Assembly: GCF_030378205.1 (NCBI RefSeq) | Contig: NZ_CP127385.1 | Location: forward strand, 4,194,001-4,258,000 | Direction: 5' to 3' | Length of the DNA stretch: 64,000 nucleotides | From: Bradyrhizobium sp. NP1 | GTDB lineage: Bacteria > Pseudomonadota > Alphaproteobacteria > Rhizobiales > Xanthobacteraceae | Shown here: one piece after another, positions 44,181 through 56,657 of the stretch | Position numbering within the stretch: position 1 is the first letter of the stretch | Layout of the letters: each line of letters starts with the position of its first letter | The notes under the pieces: model-generated | What the model saw: only the letters and a program-made list of their open reading frames with translations | The model's database searches: none | What the model was told of the DNA's origin: nothing | Made by a program: the position numbers and the translations under genes

Positions 44181-45860
44181 TCAGATCGCGATGGAGCGAT
44201 CGTAGAGGTCGCGCAGCGCCTCGTCATGCGTTGCCGACAGGACCGCGGCCCTCGGCAGGCGATGGCGGATCATGCGGTGCAACGCGCGCGCGCCTTGCTC
44301 GTCGATGGCCGAGGTCGCCTCGTCGAGCAGCAGCAGATCCGGCGCGACAAGCAGGACCCTTGCCAGCGACAGGCGCTGCTTCTCGCCTTCGGAAAGCACC
44401 TTGTCCCACGCATCGGCCACGTCGAGACAGGGCTTCAGCCGCGACAGCCCGACCGCATCGAGAGCCTCGTGCAGATGCTTGTCGCCGACCGCGCCGGCAG
44501 GCGCGGGATAGCTGAGCGCGCGGCGCAGCGAGCCAAGCGGAATATAGGGTCGTTGCGGCAGGGCGAGCAGATGATCGCTCGCATGCGCCACCGTTCCGCT
44601 GGCGCGCGGCCAGATACCTGCCAGACGGCGCAGCAGGCTCGTCTTGCCGGCGCCGGAAGCGCCGGTCAGCAGCACCGCCTCGCCGGCAGCCAGCGCAAGC
44701 TCCTTGAGGCCGGCAATCGGCCGGCCGGCCTGATCGTTGACGGCGAGATCCCTGACCAGCAGGGCCTCCTTCGCTGGCGGAGACGCCGGCTGACCGGACC
44801 GTTCGGCCGCGGCGATCGCACGCTCGAATTGCGACAGGCGCTGAACCGTCGCTGCCAGTTCGGCGATTTTCAGGTAGGAGCTGATGAAATAGGAAAAGGC
44901 ATCGCGGACCTCGTTGAAGGCGGAGCCCGACTGCATCAGCGCGCCGAGCTGCATGCTGCCGGCAAAGAACAGCGGCGACGCCACCAGGTAGGGAAAGTAG
45001 AGCGAGAAGTGTCGATAGGTCGTCGCGAACAGCAGAACGAATTGCTGCCAGCGCATCAGCCGGTGCCAGTTCTGCGCAATCTCCGAAAACAGCGCCAGCA
45101 ATTGGTGCCGTTCGGAGGCCTCGCCCCGCAGCAGCGCGACGGCTTCCGAATTCTCCCGGACGCGCACCAGCGCAAAGCGAAAATCGGCCTCCCGCCGTTG
45201 CTGCTCGAAATCGGTCGGAATGAGGCGCCGGCCGATCCAGTGCGTGACGATGCTGCCGACCAGCGCGTAGAGCAGCGCGGCCCAAACCAGATAGCCCGGG
45301 ACGGCGTATGCGTTTCCGAACAGCTGCAAGGGCACGAGGTTCGAAAGTGTCCACAGCACCGCAACGAAGGAGAACAGCCTCGCGATCGCGCCGATCAGAC
45401 CGACGGCAAGCGAGAGTGCATCGTCGATGAATTGCCTGACGTCTTCGGCGATGCGCTGGTCGGGATTGTCGACATCACCGCCTGCGATCATCGCCCGGTA
45501 GTGCACCGGCCCGTTTAGCCACCTCTCGAGATAATGCGTCGTGAGCCAGCGGCGCCAGCGAATGGTCAGCCATTGCGTCAGATAGCGCTGGTACACGGTG
45601 GCCAGCACGAAGAACACGCCGATGCCGCAATAGACGCCGAACTGGGTCATGAAGCCGGCCCAGTCCCTGTCCTGCAGCGTCTGGAAGAAGGCGTTGCGCC
45701 AATAGTTGGTCGCAACGGCCGTGCCGACCAGGACGAGCTGGACGGCGATTGCGCCCGCCAGCAATGCGGTCGCGCTCCGGCGCTCCTCGGACCGGAAATA
45801 GGCGGCCGCGATGCGGGCGGCATCCCGAAAGGAACTCTGCAACGAAGGGATATCGTTCAA
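44181..45860 (-). CDS. ABC transporter permease-ATPase fusion (SbmA/BacA-like, Rv1819c/YddA type)
   Basis: A fused half-transporter of about 559 residues. The N-terminal SbmA/BacA-like membrane domain has about six helices (YWRNAFFQTLQDRDW, NPDQRIAEDVRQFIDDAL are family signatures). The ATPase domain has Walker A GASGAGKTSLLRRL, signature LSEGEKQRLSLARVLL and Walker B DLLLLDEATSAID. Relatives import B12 and peptides (Rv1819c of M. tuberculosis) or confer peptide resistance (BclA of Bradyrhizobium). TTG 45860 overlaps the FhuF stop (TTGA), so coupled translation is likely; an upstream frame to 45911 would overlap FhuF by 55 bases. Last gene of a riboswitch-controlled operon. Confidence 0.9.
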   Translation of the reverse strand: MNDIPSLQSSFRDAARIAAAYFRSEERRSATALLAGAIAVQLVLVGTAVATNYWRNAFFQTLQDRDWAGFMTQFGVYCGIGVFFVLATVYQRYLTQWLTIRWRRWLTTHYLERWLNGPVHYRAMIAGGDVDNPDQRIAEDVRQFIDDALSLAVGLIGAIARLFSFVAVLWTLSNLVPLQLFGNAYAVPGYLVWAALLYALVGSIVTHWIGRRLIPTDFEQQRREADFRFALVRVRENSEAVALLRGEASERHQLLALFSEIAQNWHRLMRWQQFVLLFATTYRHFSLYFPYLVASPLFFAGSMQLGALMQSGSAFNEVRDAFSYFISSYLKIAELAATVQRLSQFERAIAAAERSGQPASPPAKEALLVRDLAVNDQAGRPIAGLKELALAAGEAVLLTGASGAGKTSLLRRLAGIWPRASGTVAHASDHLLALPQRPYIPLGSLRRALSYPAPAGAVGDKHLHEALDAVGLSRLKPCLDVADAWDKVLSEGEKQRLSLARVLLVAPDLLLLDEATSAIDEQGARALHRMIRHRLPRAAVLSATHDEALRDLYDRSIAI

Positions 45861-46615
45861 GGGATCGTTCTTTCCTGGCGAGAAGGAGCGCGTGCTTCCT
45901 CGATGGGACACGCCTTGCAGAAGCGGCGATCGGGCAGGAGATATTGCAGGCAGCAGACGCGCCGCCGGCGAACGGCCGCCCCGCCCTGCTCCGATGCGTA
46001 GTGGACCGCATCGAACAGGGGATTGGGCTCGCCGGGCCAGTCGGGCTCATCCAGGATGCGCTGCGCCTGCGCGAGCCGCTCCGATGGTCCCGACACCGCC
46101 TCGATCCGGCGCAGCATCGCTTCGAAGGTGTTGCCGACATTGCTCCAGAACACGCGGCGGGTGACGTCGGTCCGCGCGCACCACATCTCGATCAACGGCG
46201 CGAAATGGTCGAAGACGAGCGGCTTGAGGCGACGGAAGGGATCGGCGAGGCCCCATGTGTCCGTCGTCTCGCTGATCCTTATCGCGTCGATGCGCCCGTC
46301 CTCGGCGAGGATGAAGCGCGTTGCCGCGAGATCCACGCCGACGGACTGTCCGAGCAGGATATCGGCGAGCAGCACCGGCGGGATGAAGGCGTTGAGATAC
46401 CATTTCATCCAGATCGAGTGGACGGCGCGCGGATCGAAGGCGTCAAACCGGCGTGCAAAGCGATCCTCGATCGCCTTGCGCATCGCGGTATCCAGAAGCT
46501 CGTCCGCCCCGACGGACCGGCGCTGATCCCGCTGCCCGACGAGGCGGCCGCCGAACGCGGCATAGCCGCCGACGGCAAGCCGGTCGATCGCGTCGCAAAC
46601 CTCGTCCGGCGTCAC
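45857..46615 (-). CDS. FhuF-like 2Fe-2S siderophore-iron reductase
   Basis: A 252-residue protein of the FhuF/IucA-type reductase family. The C-terminal 2Fe-2S ligands are in CCLQYLLPDRRFCKACP, Cys221, 222, 233 and 236 (CC-x10-C-x2-C), exactly the FhuF pattern. FhuF reduces ferric iron bound to hydroxamate siderophores in the cytoplasm. Here it lies between a TonB receptor and an ABC transporter gene downstream of a cobalamin riboswitch, so it might reduce the cobalt of an imported corrinoid instead; this is inference. The start is GTG 46615 with GTGAGGAAC upstream, 21 bases after the receptor stop. Confidence 0.9.
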   Translation of the reverse strand: MTPDEVCDAIDRLAVGGYAAFGGRLVGQRDQRRSVGADELLDTAMRKAIEDRFARRFDAFDPRAVHSIWMKWYLNAFIPPVLLADILLGQSVGVDLAATRFILAEDGRIDAIRISETTDTWGLADPFRRLKPLVFDHFAPLIEMWCARTDVTRRVFWSNVGNTFEAMLRRIEAVSGPSERLAQAQRILDEPDWPGEPNPLFDAVHYASEQGGAAVRRRRVCCLQYLLPDRRFCKACPIEEARAPSRQERTIP

Positions 46616-46636
46616 GCGTTCCTCACCCTGCCAACA

Positions 46637-48958
46637 TCACCAGCGGGCCCGCAGCGTCCCGATGATGTTGCGGCCGGGACCGTAGTAGCAGTTGAACTGA
46701 TCGTCGCAGGAGCCGACGTAGCGGGTATCCATGAGGTTCTTGACGTTCAGCGCCACATCCCATTTCGCCAGCGTCGGCGACAGCGCGCCCAGCTCGTAGC
46801 GCGCCGTGAGGTCGTACAGGGTGAACGACGGCACAGGCAGGGTGTTGAGCGCATCGACCGCCTGATCGCCGACGAAGCGCACGCCGCCGCCCAGCGTCAC
46901 CCCGCGCATAACGCCTTCGGCGAAGCGGTAGGTGGTCCACAGCGACGCCTGGTTCATGGGAATGCCGACCGGATGCTTGCCCACGCCGCCGATGGTGTTG
47001 GTCGCGATTACCTTCGCATCGAGATAGGTATAGGCCGCGCTGACGTTGAAGCCATAGAGCCGCGTCGTCTTCAGCTCGACCTCGCCGCCCTGGCTCCGTA
47101 CGGAGCTCGTCTGCACCGCAAAGCCGGGATGCGAGAGGTCGTTCGTCAGCACGTCGTACTGCGTGATGTCGAAAACGGCCGCGGTCAGCAGCAGGTCGAG
47201 GCCGGGCGGCATGTACTTGATACCGACCTCCTTCTGGTCGCCGGTTACGGGAATGAAGGCACGACCGAAAAAGTCCGTTCCAGAGGTCGGCGTAAAGGTC
47301 TGCGAATAGCTCGCATAGGGCGCAACGCCGTTGCTGAAATTGTAGATCAGGCCGCCGTTGTAGGTGAGGCCATGATCGGGCTGCAGCGTCCATGGCGGGT
47401 TGGAGAGCACGCCGGTCGTCGTGTTGAGCGTGCGCGTCTTCTGGTCCTGCTCAAGGTTGTCATAACGCACACCGGCGAGGACCGACAGGCGGCCGATCTC
47501 GGTGCGGTCCTGGATGTAAGTGCCGAACTGGCGCTGATCCTGGTAGCGGTTCGTGGTGATGATCGGGGTCGGCACCGGCGTTCCGTAGGCCGGGCTATAG
47601 AAATTGAAGTTGGTGGCGGCCGCCGTGCCCGTCCCCTGGTAGTTGGGCACGGCCGAATAATCGACGCCGAACAGCACGTGATGGCGCAACATCCCGTTAT
47701 CGAAATCCGCCTTGAGACGGTTGTCGATCTGATACATGTCGATCTGGAAGGTCTGGTTGGCGGCCATCCGCGCAGTGGTCGTGGTGCTTGCCGACGCCCT
47801 GCTCTGCACCTCGTTCAAATTGATGTCGATATTCTGGTAATAGAAGTTCTGCTGGAACGAGAAGACCTCGTTCATCTGGTGCTTGAACTCGTAGCCGATG
47901 CGGGCCTGCTGCACGGATGTGTCGTGAAAGCCGGGCTCGCCGAGGAAGAGATTGCGCGAGATGAACTGACCGGTCGGGCCCGGCACGACTGCCCCCTGAT
48001 AGGGCAGCGGCTGCAGCACGGTGACGTGGGGATCGTACTGATAGGCCGCGAGGATCGTCAGGCTGGTGTCCTCGTTGCGCCAGGTGAAGGACGGCGCGAA
48101 ATAGGCGCGCTCGTTCCGGGTGAAATCGATTTCGCCGTCGCCGAACCTGCCGACGCCGACCACGCGATAGAGCAGCGAACGATCCGACGTGACCGGACCG
48201 CCGACGTCGAACGCGCCTTCCATCGTGTTGCGCAGGCCGAACCGTAGCAGCGCCTCGCCGAACGCCTGGTCGGTGGGCCGCTTGCTGGTGATGTCCCAGA
48301 GGCCGCCGGGACTGCCCTGCCCGTACAGCGTCGCCGCCGGTCCCTTCAGCACGTCGATGCGCTCGAACCCATAAGGCTCCAGCCCGTAATTGTTGACGTT
48401 GAGCCTGAGCCCGTCGAGGAATTGCAGCGCCTGAAATCCCCGGATCGACACGAAGTCGCGCGTGAACTGGCCCTCGCGGAAATAGCTGCTGACGCCCGCG
48501 GTATATTGCAGCGCCTCGCGCACGCTCTGGGCGTCGCGGTCGGCGATCTCCTGTTGCGTCACCGTCGAGACCGAGCGCGGCAGCTGGAGAATGGGTGTTG
48601 CGACCTTGGCGCCGGCCGTGGTGGTTTGCGCGAAATAACCTTCAATGCCGTCACGTGGCAGGCTCGCGGCATTTTCGGCTGGCGCGATCGGCGCGGGATT
48701 GGCGTGCGAGCGTGCCGCCCTCGCCGTCCGCCGCGCCGCATTGCGCGGCCTTGCGCCGGGATCGGCCGCGGAACGCGGCGTGGCCTGCCCCGGCTGCACG
48801 ACAACAGGCGGCAGCGTCGGATCGGGCCGGGCCTGCTGAGCTTCGGCCGACCCGCCCGCCGCGATCGCGCCGATCAGTGCGACCGCAACCGCGGTCCCAA
48901 CCCGTGAAAAATCTCCACCCACACAACTTGAATGAATTCGCAACAAAACAACCCCCAT
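46637..48958 (-). CDS. TonB-dependent receptor (ferric siderophore class), B12-riboswitch controlled
   Basis: An outer-membrane TonB-dependent transporter of about 773 residues. A signal peptide (GTAVAVALIGAIAAGGSAEA) is followed by an unusual Ala/Arg/Pro-rich segment, then a plug domain with LPRSVSTVTQQEIADRDA, FVSIRGFQALQFLDGLRLN and YGFERIDVLKGPAATLYGQG, then a 22-strand barrel ending in an aromatic residue (RARW). The class is that of ferrichrome or ferric-hydroxamate receptors (FhuA/FegA), but the leader carries a cobalamin riboswitch. The start is uncertain: ATG 48958, ATG 49003 and GTG 49024 are all in frame. First gene of the three-gene operon. Confidence 0.92.
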   Translation of the reverse strand: MGVVLLRIHSSCVGGDFSRVGTAVAVALIGAIAAGGSAEAQQARPDPTLPPVVVQPGQATPRSAADPGARPRNAARRTARAARSHANPAPIAPAENAASLPRDGIEGYFAQTTTAGAKVATPILQLPRSVSTVTQQEIADRDAQSVREALQYTAGVSSYFREGQFTRDFVSIRGFQALQFLDGLRLNVNNYGLEPYGFERIDVLKGPAATLYGQGSPGGLWDITSKRPTDQAFGEALLRFGLRNTMEGAFDVGGPVTSDRSLLYRVVGVGRFGDGEIDFTRNERAYFAPSFTWRNEDTSLTILAAYQYDPHVTVLQPLPYQGAVVPGPTGQFISRNLFLGEPGFHDTSVQQARIGYEFKHQMNEVFSFQQNFYYQNIDINLNEVQSRASASTTTTARMAANQTFQIDMYQIDNRLKADFDNGMLRHHVLFGVDYSAVPNYQGTGTAAATNFNFYSPAYGTPVPTPIITTNRYQDQRQFGTYIQDRTEIGRLSVLAGVRYDNLEQDQKTRTLNTTTGVLSNPPWTLQPDHGLTYNGGLIYNFSNGVAPYASYSQTFTPTSGTDFFGRAFIPVTGDQKEVGIKYMPPGLDLLLTAAVFDITQYDVLTNDLSHPGFAVQTSSVRSQGGEVELKTTRLYGFNVSAAYTYLDAKVIATNTIGGVGKHPVGIPMNQASLWTTYRFAEGVMRGVTLGGGVRFVGDQAVDALNTLPVPSFTLYDLTARYELGALSPTLAKWDVALNVKNLMDTRYVGSCDDQFNCYYGPGRNIIGTLRARW

Positions 48959-49184
48959 CGCGCGAATGACGGTGAACACGCACGCCCCTATGGGCGCGCG
49001 CATCACCGCGCACGACGCCGGCACGGCCTACGGCAGCTCTTTCAATGGCAAAACCGAACGGACCCCACGGCAACGTGACACGTCACCGCGACAAACCCTC
49101 CACGAGAGCGCCCGAAGGTCTCTCAAGCTGAAGAGTTTCGCTTCGGCTCACCCCGTCCGATGCGTCTCGCCCGTGACCACGACT

Positions 49185-49357
49185 GACGGCAGGTCTCCTG
49201 GCTCGCGGGTCACCGCCTCGTGGTCGCCTTCCCAGATCCAAGGGGATCCAGTGGCCAATGACACGAGGCTCGCCGCTTACAGTTGCGGGGGCAGCTGCGG
49301 CGTTGGGAAAATTCCCGCACCGCATTCCCTTTTCATCTCGAAAAAACGAGAACCGTC
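49185..49357 (-). ncRNA. Cobalamin riboswitch
   Basis: Read on the minus strand, the core elements occur in order: AAAAGGGAATGCGGTG, CTGCCCCCGCAACTGTAAGC, GCCACTGG, TGGGAAGGC and the B12 box GAGCCAGGAGACCTGCCG. Closing P0 arms GACGG (49357-49353) and CCGTC (49189-49185) pair. About 225 bases then lead to the receptor start, containing several possible hairpins that could be the expression platform. It should bind adenosyl- or other cobalamins and repress the receptor-FhuF-ABC operon. Confidence 0.96.
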
Positions 49358-49456
49358 GAGGATCACCCTAGGTTTGCGAAGCGCTCACTGTCAAGCAGCG
49401 CGACAGTCGCGCTTGTGCGCAGCACCTGGTGCTGTGGCGAAATGTCCCGTCGCCCG

Positions 49457-52883: not shown

Positions 52884-55800
52884 ATGCGAATCGAACGACG
52901 CCACACCAAAGCCGGCCAATCACCCTATGCCGGCATCGATTTCAGATTGACGACATCGGAGATCCGCAACCCCGACGGCTCGGTGGTGTTTCGCGCTGAA
53001 AACGTCGAGATCCCCGAGGTCTGGTCGCAGGTCGCCTCCGACGTGCTGGCCCAGAAATACTTCCGCAAAGCCGGCGTCGCCGCCAGGCTGAAGAAAGTCG
53101 AGGAGGAGACGGTCCCCTCCTTCCTGTGGCGCGCGGTGCCGGACGCCGAGGCGCTGAGCCTGCTGCCCGAGAAGGAACGCTATGTCGGCGAGACCTCGGC
53201 CAAGCAGGTGTTCGATCGCCTTGCCGGCTGCTGGACCTATTGGGGCTGGAAGGGCGGCTATTTCTCTTCGGAAGAAGACGCGCAGGCCTTCTTCGACGAG
53301 CTGCGCTACATGCTGGCGAAGCAAATGGTGGCGCCGAACTCGCCGCAATGGTTCAACACCGGGCTGCACTGGGCCTATGGCGTCGACGGCCCCGGCCAGG
53401 GCCACTATTACGTCGACTGGAAGACCGGCAAGCTGACGAAATCCAAGTCGGCCTATGAGCATCCGCAGCCGCACGCCTGCTTCATCCAGGGCATCGAGGA
53501 CGACCTCGTCAACGAGGGCGGCATCATGGACCTCTGGGTGCGCGAGGCGCGCCTGTTCAAATATGGCTCCGGCACCGGCTCGAACTTCTCGCGCCTGCGC
53601 GGCGAAGGCGAGCGCCTGTCCGGCGGTGGCCGCTCGTCGGGCCTGATGAGCTTCCTCAAGATCGGCGACCGCGCCGCCGGCGCGATCAAGTCGGGCGGCA
53701 CCACGCGCCGCGCCGCCAAGATGGTCGTGGTCGACGTCGATCACCCCGACATCGAGACCTATATCGACTGGAAGGTGAAGGAGGAGCAGAAGGTCGCAGC
53801 GCTCGTGACCGGCTCCAAGATCAACCAGAAGCACCTCAAGGCCGTGATGAAGGCCTGCGTCAACTGCGAGGGTTCTGGCGACGACTGCTTCGATCCCGAG
53901 AAGAACCCGGCGCTCCGCCGCGAGATCAAGCTGGCGCGCCGCTCGCTGGTGCCCGACAACTACATCAAGCGGGTGATCCAGTTCGCCAAGCAGGGCTACA
54001 AGGACATCCAGTTCGACATCTACGACACCGACTGGGATTCGGAAGCCTACCTCACGGTGTCAGGCCAGAACTCCAACAACTCGGTCTCGCTGAAGGACGA
54101 CTTCCTGCGCGCGGTGGAGACCGACGGCGAGTGGAGCCTGATCGGCCGCACCACCAAGAAGGTGACGAAGACGCTGAAGGCCCGCGACCTCTGGGAGAAG
54201 ATCGGCTACGCCGCCTGGGCGTCCGCCGATCCGGGCCTGCACTTCAACACCACGATGAACGACTGGCACACCTGCAAGGCGTCCGGCGACATCCGCGCGT
54301 CCAATCCGTGCTCGGAATACATGTTCCTGGACGACACGGCGTGCAATCTGGCCTCTGCCAACCTGCTGACCTTCTACGACACCACGACCAAGCACTTCGA
54401 CGTGGAGTCCTACGAGCATCTCTGCCGGCTGTGGACGCTGGTGCTCGAGATCTCCGTGATGATGGCGCAGTTCCCCTCCAAGGCGATCGCCGAGCTCTCC
54501 TACGAGTTCCGCACGCTGGGGCTCGGCTTTGCCAATATCGGCGGCCTCTTGATGACCATGGGGCTTCCTTACGACAGCAAGGAAGGCCGCGCGCTCTGCG
54601 GCACGCTGACCTCGATCATGACCGGCATCGCCTACAAGACCTCGGCCGAGATGGCGGCTGAACTGGGCACCTTCCCCGGCTACAAGAAGAACGCGGCGCA
54701 CATGCTGCGGGTGATCCGCAACCACCGCCGCGCCGCGCACGGCCAGGCCTCCGGCTACGAGGCGCTGTCCGTCAACCCGGTGCCGCTCGACCACGCCTCC
54801 TGCCCGCAACCCGCCCTCGTCGCGCATGCGACCAAGGCCTGGGACGAGGCGCTGGAGCTTGGCGAGAAGAACGGCTACCGCAACGCGCAGACCACGGTGG
54901 TCGCGCCGACCGGCACGATCGGGCTCGTGATGGACTGCGACACCACGGGCATCGAGCCGGACTTCGCGCTGGTGAAGTTCAAGAAGCTCGCCGGCGGCGG
55001 CTACTTCAAGATCATCAACCGCGCGGTCCCCGAGGCGCTGCGCGCGCTCGGCTATCGCGAGAGCGAGATCGCGGAGATCGAGGCCTATGCCGTCGGCCAC
55101 GGTTCGCTCTCCAACGCGCCGGCCGTCAACGCCTCCACCTTGAAAGCAAAGGGCTTCACCGATGAGGCCATCGCGAAGGTGGAAAAGGCGCTGCCGACCG
55201 CCTTCGACATCAAGTTCGCCTTCAACAAGTGGACTTTCGGCGAGGACTTCATCCGCGACCAGCTCGGCATCGGCGCGGAAGCCATTGCCGCGCCGAACTT
55301 CGACCTGCTCGCGGCGGTCGGCTTCACCAAGCGCGAGATCGAGGCGGCCAACGTCCACATCTGCGGCGCCATGACGGTGGAAGGCGCGCCGCATCTTAGG
55401 CCTGAGCACTATCCGGTGTTCGACTGCGCCAACCCCTGCGGCAAGATCGGCAAGCGCTATCTGTCGGTGGAAAGCCACATCCGCATGATGGCGGCGTCGC
55501 AGCCCTTCATCTCGGGCGCGATCTCGAAGACCATCAACATGCCGAACGACGCCACGGTCGAGGACTGCAAGTCCGCCTACCTCTTGTCCTGGAAGCTGGC
55601 GCTGAAGGCCAACGCGCTCTACCGCGACGGCTCGAAGCTCTCGCAGCCGCTCAACTCGCAGCTCATCGCCGACGATGAGGACGAGGACGATGCGGTCGAG
55701 CAACTCTACGACAAGCCGATGGCTGCGCGGGCGACGCAGGTCTCCGAGAAGATCGTGGAGAAGCTCGTCGAGCGCATCATCGTGATGCGCGAGCGCGAGA

Positions 55801-56657
55801 AGATGCCGGATCGCCGCAAGGGCTACACCCAGAAGGCCGTGGTCGGCGGACACAAGGTCTACTTGCGCACCGGCGAATATGACGACGGCCGCCTCGGCGA
55901 GATCTTCATCGACATGCACAAGGAAGGCGCCGCACTTCGCTCCTTCATCAACAACTTCGCGATCGCGGTCTCGCTCGGCCTGCAATACGGCGTGCCGCTC
56001 GATGAATATGTCGACGCCTTCACCTTCACCCGCTTCGAGCCGGCGGGCCCGGTGCAGGGTAACGACAGCATCAAGTACGCGACCTCGATCCTGGACTATG
56101 TGTTCCGCGAGCTCGCGGTGAGCTACCTGTCGCGCTTCGACCTCGCCCATGTCGATCCGACCGAGAGTAGCTTCGACGCGCTCGGCAAGGGCGTCGAGGA
56201 AGGCAAGGAGCCGGACGACACGCATGGCAGCCACCAGGCCATCAAGTACCTGTCGAAGGGCCTGACGCGCTCGCGCACCGACAACCTCGTGGTCATGCGC
56301 GGCGGCTCGGCGGCGGTCTCCTCCGGCTCGGACTCCGCGCCCGCGGGCGGCTCGCGCGTCACCGCGCTGTCGCAGCACGGGGCCACCAACCGCGCCGGCG
56401 ATGCGGCCGAGGGCGCGGTTGCGCTCAAGCAGGAGTCGAGCCACGACCTCTCGCCGACCGAGAAGCTCGAGGCGCTGCAATGGAGCAAGGCGGGCGCCGC
56501 CGCAGCCGCCGCGCCCTCCAAGGCCGAGCGCCGGGCTGAGGCGAAAGCCAAAGGCTACGAAGGCGAGATGTGCTCCGAGTGCGGCAACTTCACCTTGGTG
56601 CGCAACGGCACCTGCATGAAGTGCGATACGTGCGGGTCGACGACGGGGTGTTCGTGA
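52884..56657 (+). CDS. nrdJ: Adenosylcobalamin-dependent ribonucleotide reductase (class II)
   Basis: Makes deoxyribonucleotides without oxygen using an adenosylcobalamin-derived thiyl radical. The 1257-residue protein has the N-terminal [18 protein letters not shown], the catalytic region [20 protein letters not shown] with the essential Cys and Glu, the substrate-phosphate motif [18 protein letters not shown], and a C-terminal zinc/redox region with [18 protein letters not shown] and the terminal Cys pair. Length matches the large alphaproteobacterial form. It is the main RNR of Bradyrhizobium-type bacteria, which makes B12 supply essential. A hairpin follows it. Confidence 0.97.

What the first reader, a model, noticed from the sequence alone, without database searches (positions are those of the whole stretch)
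44181..49357. Cobalamin-riboswitch operon coding for a siderophore-type receptor, a FhuF-like reductase and an Rv1819c-type ABC transporter
The riboswitch core is unmistakable on the minus strand, and the three genes below it are 21 bases apart or overlapping, so they form one unit. The receptor and FhuF belong to families that handle ferric siderophores, and the ABC protein is of the SbmA/BacA type whose relative Rv1819c takes up B12. The classical BtuCDF route is absent here. I infer a self-contained pathway: outer-membrane capture, then uptake across the inner membrane by a fused ABC protein, then reduction of the metal centre. The substrate could be cobalamin, a corrinoid precursor or a siderophore-like cobalt carrier. 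I know of no described system with this set of three.
Basis: partly seen in the sequence, partly recalled or inferred. Interest (0 to 1): 0.88.

Follow-up and report, generated by a model that had tools for sequence, protein, structure and literature searches.

The report
B12-switched receptor, reductase and transporter operon
A vitamin-B12-sensing RNA controls three genes that look like a rebuilt iron-siderophore uptake route (outer-membrane receptor, iron-sulphur reductase, ABC transporter); the same set recurs in distant relatives, so it is probably a separate way of taking up B12 or a cobalt compound.

Summary
A strong cobalamin riboswitch (RF00174, 137 bits) precedes a siderophore-type TonB receptor, a FhuF-type [2Fe-2S] reductase and a BacA/BclA-superfamily ABC transporter; the genes are 21 nt apart, then overlap. 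It is a conserved but rare unit (5 of 248 family genomes). All 11 loci found with the triple carry the riboswitch in front; two lie in another family at 45-47% (receptor), 34-35% (FhuF) and 45-46% (ABC) identity. None of 17 other FhuF loci examined has the riboswitch or an ABC of this clade. The operon ABCs group apart from BclA-like proteins; the nearest solved chain is Rv1819c, a known cobalamin importer. The receptor groups with FhuA-type receptors, not BtuB. The genome's one FecCD permease sits with a heme-type ATPase, and its only class I/II ribonucleotide reductase is B12-dependent NrdJ, 3.5 kb away. However, 5 of 9 close relatives also have riboswitch-linked BtuC-like permeases, so the unit does not simply replace Btu. 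Most likely it is a B12-repressed, reduction-coupled corrinoid uptake route; a cobalt-metallophore route is the main rival. The substrate is untested. Listings of nine open-paper searches showed no description.

The parts
49171..49372 (-). Cobalamin riboswitch aptamer (RF00174)
   Evidence: 137.1 bits, E 2.1e-34, full-length model; 1 of 2 in the 7.7-Mb genome
49075..49086 (-). Core GTGACGTGTCAC of a conserved post-aptamer element, possibly part of the expression platform
   Evidence: Core (up to 1 mismatch) in 32 of 35 receptor-led cobalamin leaders and 0 of 57 others; chance about 0.1% per leader by base shuffling; position
46637..48958 (-). TonB-dependent receptor, FhuA/FoxA type (ORF open from 49024; ATG at 48958 precedes what reads as a signal peptide)
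   Evidence: PF00593, PF07715, TIGR01783; alignment of 8 operon receptors
45857..46615 (-). FhuF-type [2Fe-2S] siderophore-iron reductase homologue
   Evidence: TIGR03951 146.5 bits; Cys motif; model matches E. coli FhuF 7qp5, TM 0.76
44181..45860 (-). ABC transporter, fused membrane and ATPase parts, BacA/BclA superfamily (likely TTG start overlapping the FhuF stop)
   Evidence: PF06472, PF05992, PF00005; best solved relative Rv1819c 6tqe; own clade

Best explanation
A B12-repressed uptake operon. SHOWN: riboswitch, gene order, protein families, co-inheritance. INFERRED: when cellular B12 is low, the riboswitch lets the operon be made. The FhuA-type receptor takes a corrinoid (cobalamin or a relative) across the outer membrane by TonB. 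The BacA/BclA-superfamily ABC carries it across the inner membrane without a binding protein. FhuF then passes one electron to the corrinoid's Co(III), giving the Co(II) form that adenosyltransferase uses. Reduction would also trap the cargo inside, which matters if the transporter is bidirectional, as purified mycobacterial BacA is.
For: Riboswitch plus triple in all 11 loci found. In 248 family genomes the 5 with a close FhuF are exactly the 5 with an operon-type ABC, adjacent each time: ABC 937-986 bits against 736 for the next. Pairwise identities of the three proteins correlate at 0.81-0.92 over 9 of the 11 loci. Other riboswitch-led genes in these genomes, named from one representative per cluster, are MetE, NrdAB, NrdD, cob genes, CobT, CbiM, NicO and BtuB/C/D-like genes; in 3 genomes the operon lies beside riboswitch-led nrdAB and metE. 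Nearest solved ABC is Rv1819c; a cobalamin transporter of lysosomes, ABCD4, also ranks high. Mycobacterial BacA alone imports cobalamin in liposomes and also runs in reverse (PMC10960864, passages). The genome's one FecCD permease goes with a heme-type ATPase. Its only PF02867 ribonucleotide reductase is B12-dependent NrdJ. No CobH or CobK was found in 3 of 11 operon genomes, which therefore probably cannot make the corrin ring. E. coli FhuF has a potential of about -0.36 V at pH 7.4 (PMC8068687, passages), low enough for Co(III) to Co(II) of cobalamin by the potentials I recall.
Against: The receptor is a siderophore type and scores 41.7 against the B12-receptor cut-off of 599.7. FhuF is, as far as I recall, known only for ferric siderophores. 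The window's genome holds CobH and CobK, so B12 uptake is probably not obligatory. Five of 9 close operon genomes already have riboswitch-linked BtuC-like permeases, and the window's own FecCD permease is nearest BtuC, under the cut-off, so another corrinoid route is not excluded. The unit is rare: own plus 4 of 248 family genomes, none of 16 sampled same-genus genomes, own plus 2 of 397 in the order sample. BacA transports many unrelated compounds. The three genomes without CobH and CobK keep riboswitch-led CobN, so cobalt may still be wanted there. No ligand evidence of any kind.
Confidence: 0.48

Rival explanations
1. Cobalt-metallophore route. The receptor and ABC bring in a Co(III)-siderophore complex and FhuF reduces the inert Co(III) to free Co(II) for B12 synthesis; hence the B12 control.
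For: All three parts resemble siderophore uptake; the operon receptors group with FhuA-type receptors found in the same stretches as ordinary FhuF genes. Cobalamin riboswitches also lead cobalt-transport-type genes here (CbiM, NicO). Eight of 11 operon genomes hold CobH and CobK. The three that do not still keep CobN.
Against: The window's genome already has a CbiM gene (PF01891, 58.3 bits) in its cob cluster. Three operon genomes show no CobH or CobK, so probably need less cobalt. Metallophore-synthesis genes were not looked for.
Confidence: 0.26
2. Ferric-siderophore uptake under B12 control: when B12 is short, cells switch to iron-dependent NrdAB and need more iron.
For: Receptor and FhuF families; operon beside riboswitch-led nrdAB in 3 genomes.
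Against: The window's genome has NrdJ as its only PF02867 ribonucleotide reductase, so no NrdAB to feed. No Irr-box-like site (recalled consensus) with under 5 mismatches upstream of 8 of the 9 close operon loci; but only 2 of 8 ordinary FhuF-locus receptors had one at 2 mismatches, so this test is weak. None of 17 ordinary FhuF loci examined has the riboswitch.
Confidence: 0.13
3. The ABC imports or exports a peptide or antibiotic (BclA-like role) and is co-regulated for other reasons.
For: BclA and BacA of rhizobia import antimicrobial peptides (PMC12003926, passages); operon ABC is about 45% identical to the genome's BclA-like paralogue.
Against: Separate well-supported clade with a fixed place behind a B12 riboswitch, receptor and FhuF; the window's genome has two other members of the superfamily.
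Confidence: 0.06

Closest known systems
Rv1819c / mycobacterial BacA (6TQE; PMC10960864)
   Same: Exporter-type fold with fused ATPase, SbmA/BacA-like membrane part; known to import cobalamin without a binding protein; nearest solved relative
   Different: Passages seen mention no riboswitch-led receptor and reductase; the operon ABCs form a clade of their own, though no mycobacterial row was in the trees
Bradyrhizobium BclA
   Same: Same superfamily, about 45% identity; the genome has a BclA-like paralogue (L004)
   Different: Operon ABCs lie in another clade (100/98); none of 11 next-best family ABC loci fetched has a riboswitch in its stretch
E. coli FhuA-FhuF ferric-hydroxamate uptake
   Same: FhuA-type receptor and FhuF reductase; FhuF model fits 7qp5 at TM 0.76
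   Different: FhuBCD replaced by one BacA-superfamily ABC; control by a cobalamin riboswitch
BtuB-BtuCDF
   Same: Cobalamin riboswitch control; TonB receptor plus ABC transporter
   Different: Receptor not BtuB type, no FecCD permease or binding protein in the locus, extra reductase
IrtAB mycobactin importer (recalled; 9g2x is rank 36)
   Same: Exporter-fold ABC used for import, with reduction of the metal
   Different: Reductase is fused and flavin-type there (recalled); here a separate [2Fe-2S] FhuF

Membership tests
Cobalamin riboswitch RF00174 | Covariance-model score above gathering cut-off | tested here: met
   137.1 against 31.5 bits, full model
Cobalamin riboswitch RF00174 | Expression responds to B12 | not testable with these tools
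   No expression data
TonB-dependent siderophore receptor (TIGR01783) | Score above curated cut-off | tested here: met
   354.9 against 223.5
BtuB vitamin B12 receptor (TIGR01779) | Score above curated cut-off | tested here: not met
   41.7 against 599.7; separate clade from BtuB-like rows. The BtuB-like rows themselves score 257.6 and 292.9, also under that cut-off
FhuF siderophore-iron reductase (TIGR03951) | Score above cut-off and C-C-x10-C-x2-C cluster motif | tested here: met
   146.5 against 63.85; motif in 9 of 9 operon FhuFs checked, of 11 loci
E. coli-type FhuF (PRK10647) | Score above curated cut-off | tested here: not met
   70.9 against 300
FhuF siderophore-iron reductase (TIGR03951) | Reduces ferric siderophores | not testable with these tools
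   No assay
BacA/BclA/Rv1819c ABC superfamily | PF06472/PF05992 membrane part fused to PF00005 ATPase | tested here: met
   188.0, 143.5 and 63.4 bits, all above cut-off
SbmA (PRK11098) | Score above curated cut-off | tested here: not met
   121.8 against 492
BclA proper | Falls inside the BclA-like clade | tested here: not met
   All 12 rows labelled BclA-like lie on the other side of a supported branch; no experimentally studied BclA sequence was in the tree
BtuCDF | FecCD-type permease with binding protein in the locus | tested here: not met
   None in the operon; the genome's one FecCD permease is at 1027182-1028153 with a heme-type ATPase

The most novel reading that the evidence does not exclude
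A reduction-coupled corrinoid importer made from siderophore parts: FhuF acts on cob(III)alamin or a relative as it arrives, so that reduction drives net uptake through a bidirectional BacA-type transporter. The riboswitch-led TonB + PepSY_TM module in many of the same genomes would be a second design of the same principle.
Probability: 0.3. Interest if true: 0.87.

Novelty: new variant of a known kind. Interest (0 to 1): 0.68.

Why it matters
To my knowledge it is open how Gram-negative bacteria without BtuCDF take up B12, and cobalamin import by a BacA-type ABC has been shown in mycobacteria. A riboswitch-defined unit outside mycobacteria gives a cultivable, gene-removable test of whether BacA-superfamily transporters serve B12, and could give FhuF a substrate other than ferric siderophores.

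Tried and rejected
Considered and set aside: (1) chance grouping: the riboswitch stands before the triple in all 11 loci found. (2) Patchwork of unrelated genes: the identities of the three proteins rise and fall together (9 of 11 loci; B. stylosanthis and B. manausense left out because genes are split there). (3) Simple replacement of BtuCDF: 5 of 9 close operon genomes have both. (4) Iron control: a scan for an Irr-box-like site (recalled consensus) was too weak to decide. (5) Link to the 'Bradyrhizobium homologous clade' of unknown function in PMC12003926 (passages): those sequences were not at hand; that paper puts it with ExsE, and the operon ABC is nearer the BclA-like paralogue than L006, so probably not the same. 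(6) A conserved short leader peptide MTCH in the post-aptamer element: open in the leaders shown, but only one base varies, so coding is not shown. (7) No residue-level comparison of the receptor's ligand site with BtuB or FhuA was made. (8) The ABC model is of middling quality (mean pLDDT 76; TM 0.53, rmsd 18.6 to 6tqe), so only the fold is taken from it.

Limits: the 248, 337 and 397 genomes are samples drawn by the tool. A2 held operon proteins of the family, so the gap is partly by construction; the FhuF search was separate. Cluster names in the riboswitch survey rest on one representative each; the BtuB-, BtuC- and BtuD-like representatives are under their curated cut-offs. In the receptor tree L036 gave no long ORF and is missing. 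NrdD-type (class III) reductases were not searched in the window's genome. Mended on checking: the naming of the FecCD cluster (one search added), which lowered the best explanation from 0.50 to 0.48 and raised the cobalt and iron rivals by 0.01 each.
Full report
WHAT IS THERE. The window lies in a 7.71-Mb single-contig genome of the Bradyrhizobium kind, judged from its protein relatives. On the minus strand a full cobalamin riboswitch (RF00174, 137.1 bits, cut-off 31.5) spans 49171-49372. Below it follow a TonB receptor (46637 to 48958 or 49024), FhuF (45857-46615) and a fused ABC protein (44181 to 45860 or 45911). Twenty-one bases separate receptor and FhuF; FhuF and ABC most likely overlap by 4 nt (TTGA). 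The receptor is of the siderophore subfamily (TIGR01783, 354.9 against 223.5) and far from the B12-receptor model (41.7 against 599.7); FhuF passes TIGR03951 and keeps the four cluster cysteines. The ABC has PF06472, PF05992 and PF00005. By sequence the nearest solved chains are, for the receptor, an enantio-pyochelin receptor (3qlb), FoxA, CntO and FhuA; for the ABC Rv1819c (6tqe, E 2.8e-126), then a chain named ABC transporter D family member 1, then lysosomal ABCD4; for FhuF E. coli FhuF 7qp5. Models agree in fold: ABC to 6tqe at TM 0.53, rmsd 18.6 (mean pLDDT 76), FhuF to 7qp5 at TM 0.76 (mean pLDDT 91).

IT IS A CONSERVED BUT RARE UNIT. A FhuF profile found matches in 21 of 248 genomes of the family; only 5, own included, were close (over 370 bits), and none of 16 other same-genus genomes had one. 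An operon-ABC profile over the same 248 gave exactly those 5 genomes at 937-986 bits, next best 736, with the two genes adjacent each time (the profile held operon members, so part of the gap is by construction). All nine loci have the riboswitch and the order receptor-FhuF-ABC; in two of them single genes are split between frames. An order-wide FhuF search (397 genomes, 40 with a match) turned up two genomes of another family in which receptor (45-47% identity), FhuF (34-35%) and ABC (45-46%) stand in the same order, again behind a cobalamin riboswitch (124.9 and 119.3 bits). That makes 11 of the 11 triples found. In contrast, 11 FhuF loci of the family (of the 16 other genomes with a match) and 6 of the order (of the 37 others), fetched at 12-14 kb, have no cobalamin riboswitch and no ABC of this kind; one has a weak 29% hit. 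In the protein database 14 of 52 operon-type ABC clusters share their exact longest-contig length with a FhuF hit, against 0 of 68 other ABC hits (only the listed 120 of each search). Pairwise identities of the three proteins over 9 of the 11 loci correlate at 0.81-0.92 (relatedness alone would also give some correlation). In trees the operon ABCs, including the two from the other family, group together with five database rows (100/98) away from 12 BclA-like rows, and nine operon receptors form one clade (SH-aLRT 100) among FhuA-type receptors found in the same stretches as ordinary FhuF genes, away from BtuB-like rows (quick tree).

GENOMIC SETTING. The genome has one FecCD permease. The ATPase beside it passes the heme model (301.9 against 261), while the permease's nearest model is BtuC but under its cut-off (282.2 against 461). 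I read it as a heme transporter; a B12 role is not excluded. The genome's second riboswitch leads a cobW-cobN cluster; CobH and CobK are present and a CbiM gene lies in the same cluster. The only PF02867 ribonucleotide reductase is NrdJ at 52884-56657 (2366 bits against 1737 for the B12-dependent model), 3.5 kb from the riboswitch; class III enzymes were not searched. I surveyed cobalamin riboswitches in 16 genomes, 9 with the operon and 7 without: 94 matches, of which 92 leaders were examined (left out were G156:C45:133358 and the weak G024:C1:1545417). First genes downstream, named from one representative per cluster, include MetE, NrdA, NrdD, CobW, CobT, CbiM, NicO, BtuB-like and BtuC-like genes and three other receptor groups. 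The operon sits in islands with riboswitch-led nrdAB and metE in three genomes (B. manausense C16, B. stylosanthis C1, R. palustris XCP C3). Five of the nine close operon genomes also have riboswitch-linked BtuC-like permeases (G156, G181, G198, G045, G249); four do not, and none of any kind was found in B. manausense. No CobH or CobK was found in three of 11 operon genomes (G198, G045, G249); all known corrin-ring routes need CobH (recalled). They keep riboswitch-led CobN; CobW, CobN and CobO were confirmed by Pfam in G045. Completeness is given as 100% for G198 (a MAG with 4% contamination) and 99% for G045; none is given for G249, also a MAG.

HOW IT MOST LIKELY WORKS. Control by B12, and the company of other B12-scarcity genes, point to a corrinoid or cobalt cargo. 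The ABC's nearest structurally studied relative imports cobalamin alone and in both directions, with import Km 3.9 and export Km 40 micromolar for the M. marinum-type protein called BacAMm (PMC10960864, passages seen; the species reading is mine). E. coli FhuF has a potential near -0.36 V at pH 7.4 (PMC8068687, passages seen). By potentials I recall, that suffices for Co(III) to Co(II) in cobalamin but not for Co(I). Reduction after entry would pull the equilibrium inward and feed adenosyltransferase. This step is inference. The persistence of the operon in three genomes without CobH and CobK favours a corrinoid over cobalt for synthesis; retained CobN keeps the cobalt reading alive. The presence of BtuC-like permeases in five genomes suggests the operon serves another corrinoid, another affinity range, or another substrate.

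COMPARISON AND NOVELTY. It works like a siderophore route (FhuA, FhuF) with the inner-membrane step taken by a BacA-superfamily transporter and with B12 control. It is not BtuBCDF and not BclA by the tests listed. Nine searches of open papers listed none that by title or abstract describes this set; most lists were capped (for example 15 of 69, 10 of 39). The one paper holding both 'cobalamin riboswitch' and 'FhuF' uses them in unrelated places. PMC2667541 (passages seen) treats BtuFCD as the only known B12 transporter of its time. Subscription papers, among them early surveys of B12 regulons that I recall, were not searchable, so prior mention cannot be excluded. Several JGI rows already call such ABCs 'vitamin B12/bleomycin/antimicrobial peptide transport system'.

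A SECOND RESULT. About 70-83 nt after the aptamer, leaders of receptor units carry a near-invariant GTGACGTGYCAC (up to one mismatch allowed): operon 8 of 9, other receptor groups 10 of 10, 7 of 7, 5 of 5 and 2 of 2, one BtuB-like group 0 of 2, and 0 of 57 leaders of non-receptor genes. The two distant operons have it with one mismatch each. With the B12 box at a set distance it is found in 6 of 337 genomes of the class, own included, with no hit for the reversed control. Of the five loci fetched outside the window's family all have RF00174, and 4 of the 5 show a TonB-receptor match downstream in the 3.1-kb stretch. It can fold as a hairpin in one group (consensus -17.1 kcal/mol), less clearly in the others (-11.1, and -5.6 in the operon group). 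It may be a receptor-specific expression platform; its role is open.

Noticed in passing
window 49075-49086 (-) and 31 other cobalamin leaders: Near-invariant GTGACGTGYCAC 70-83 nt after the aptamer, in receptor-led units only (32 of 35, 0 of 57 non-receptor leaders); possible receptor-specific expression platform or leader peptide MTCH
   Followed up: partly
L107, L108, L111, L117, L118, L126, L129, L155, L156, L160, L162, L163: A second riboswitch-led module, FhuA-like TonB receptor plus a PepSY_TM protein of about 480 aa, in 11 of 16 genomes surveyed (6 of the 9 operon genomes); again a receptor paired with a possible reductase
   Followed up: partly
G251:C16, G248:C1, G181:C3: Islands of three to four cobalamin riboswitches: operon with nrdAB, metE, and in one case nrdD or another TonB receptor
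   Followed up: partly
window 52884-56657 (+): nrdJ, the genome's only PF02867 ribonucleotide reductase, close to the operon
   Followed up: yes
G198, G045, G249: No CobH and no CobK found, yet riboswitch-led CobN clusters retained (CobW-CobN-CobO confirmed in G045); use of CobN without ring synthesis is unexplained
   Followed up: no
L003 (G000:C1:1027182-1028153): The genome's one FecCD permease is nearest a BtuC model (under cut-off) while its ATPase passes a heme model; substrate uncertain
   Followed up: partly
L033 11703-12467 (-): 254-aa protein without Pfam match behind a second cobalamin riboswitch beside the operon in R. infernalis; my guess is a B12-binding photosynthesis regulator
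   Followed up: no
L047 5612-7976 and 8705-10407; L053 8001-8781: Receptor and ABC in B. stylosanthis and FhuF in B. manausense are split between frames; sequencing error or decay not told apart
   Followed up: no
L050 1844-4869 (-): TonB receptor and DUF4198 protein divergent from the operon in B. diversitatis
   Followed up: no
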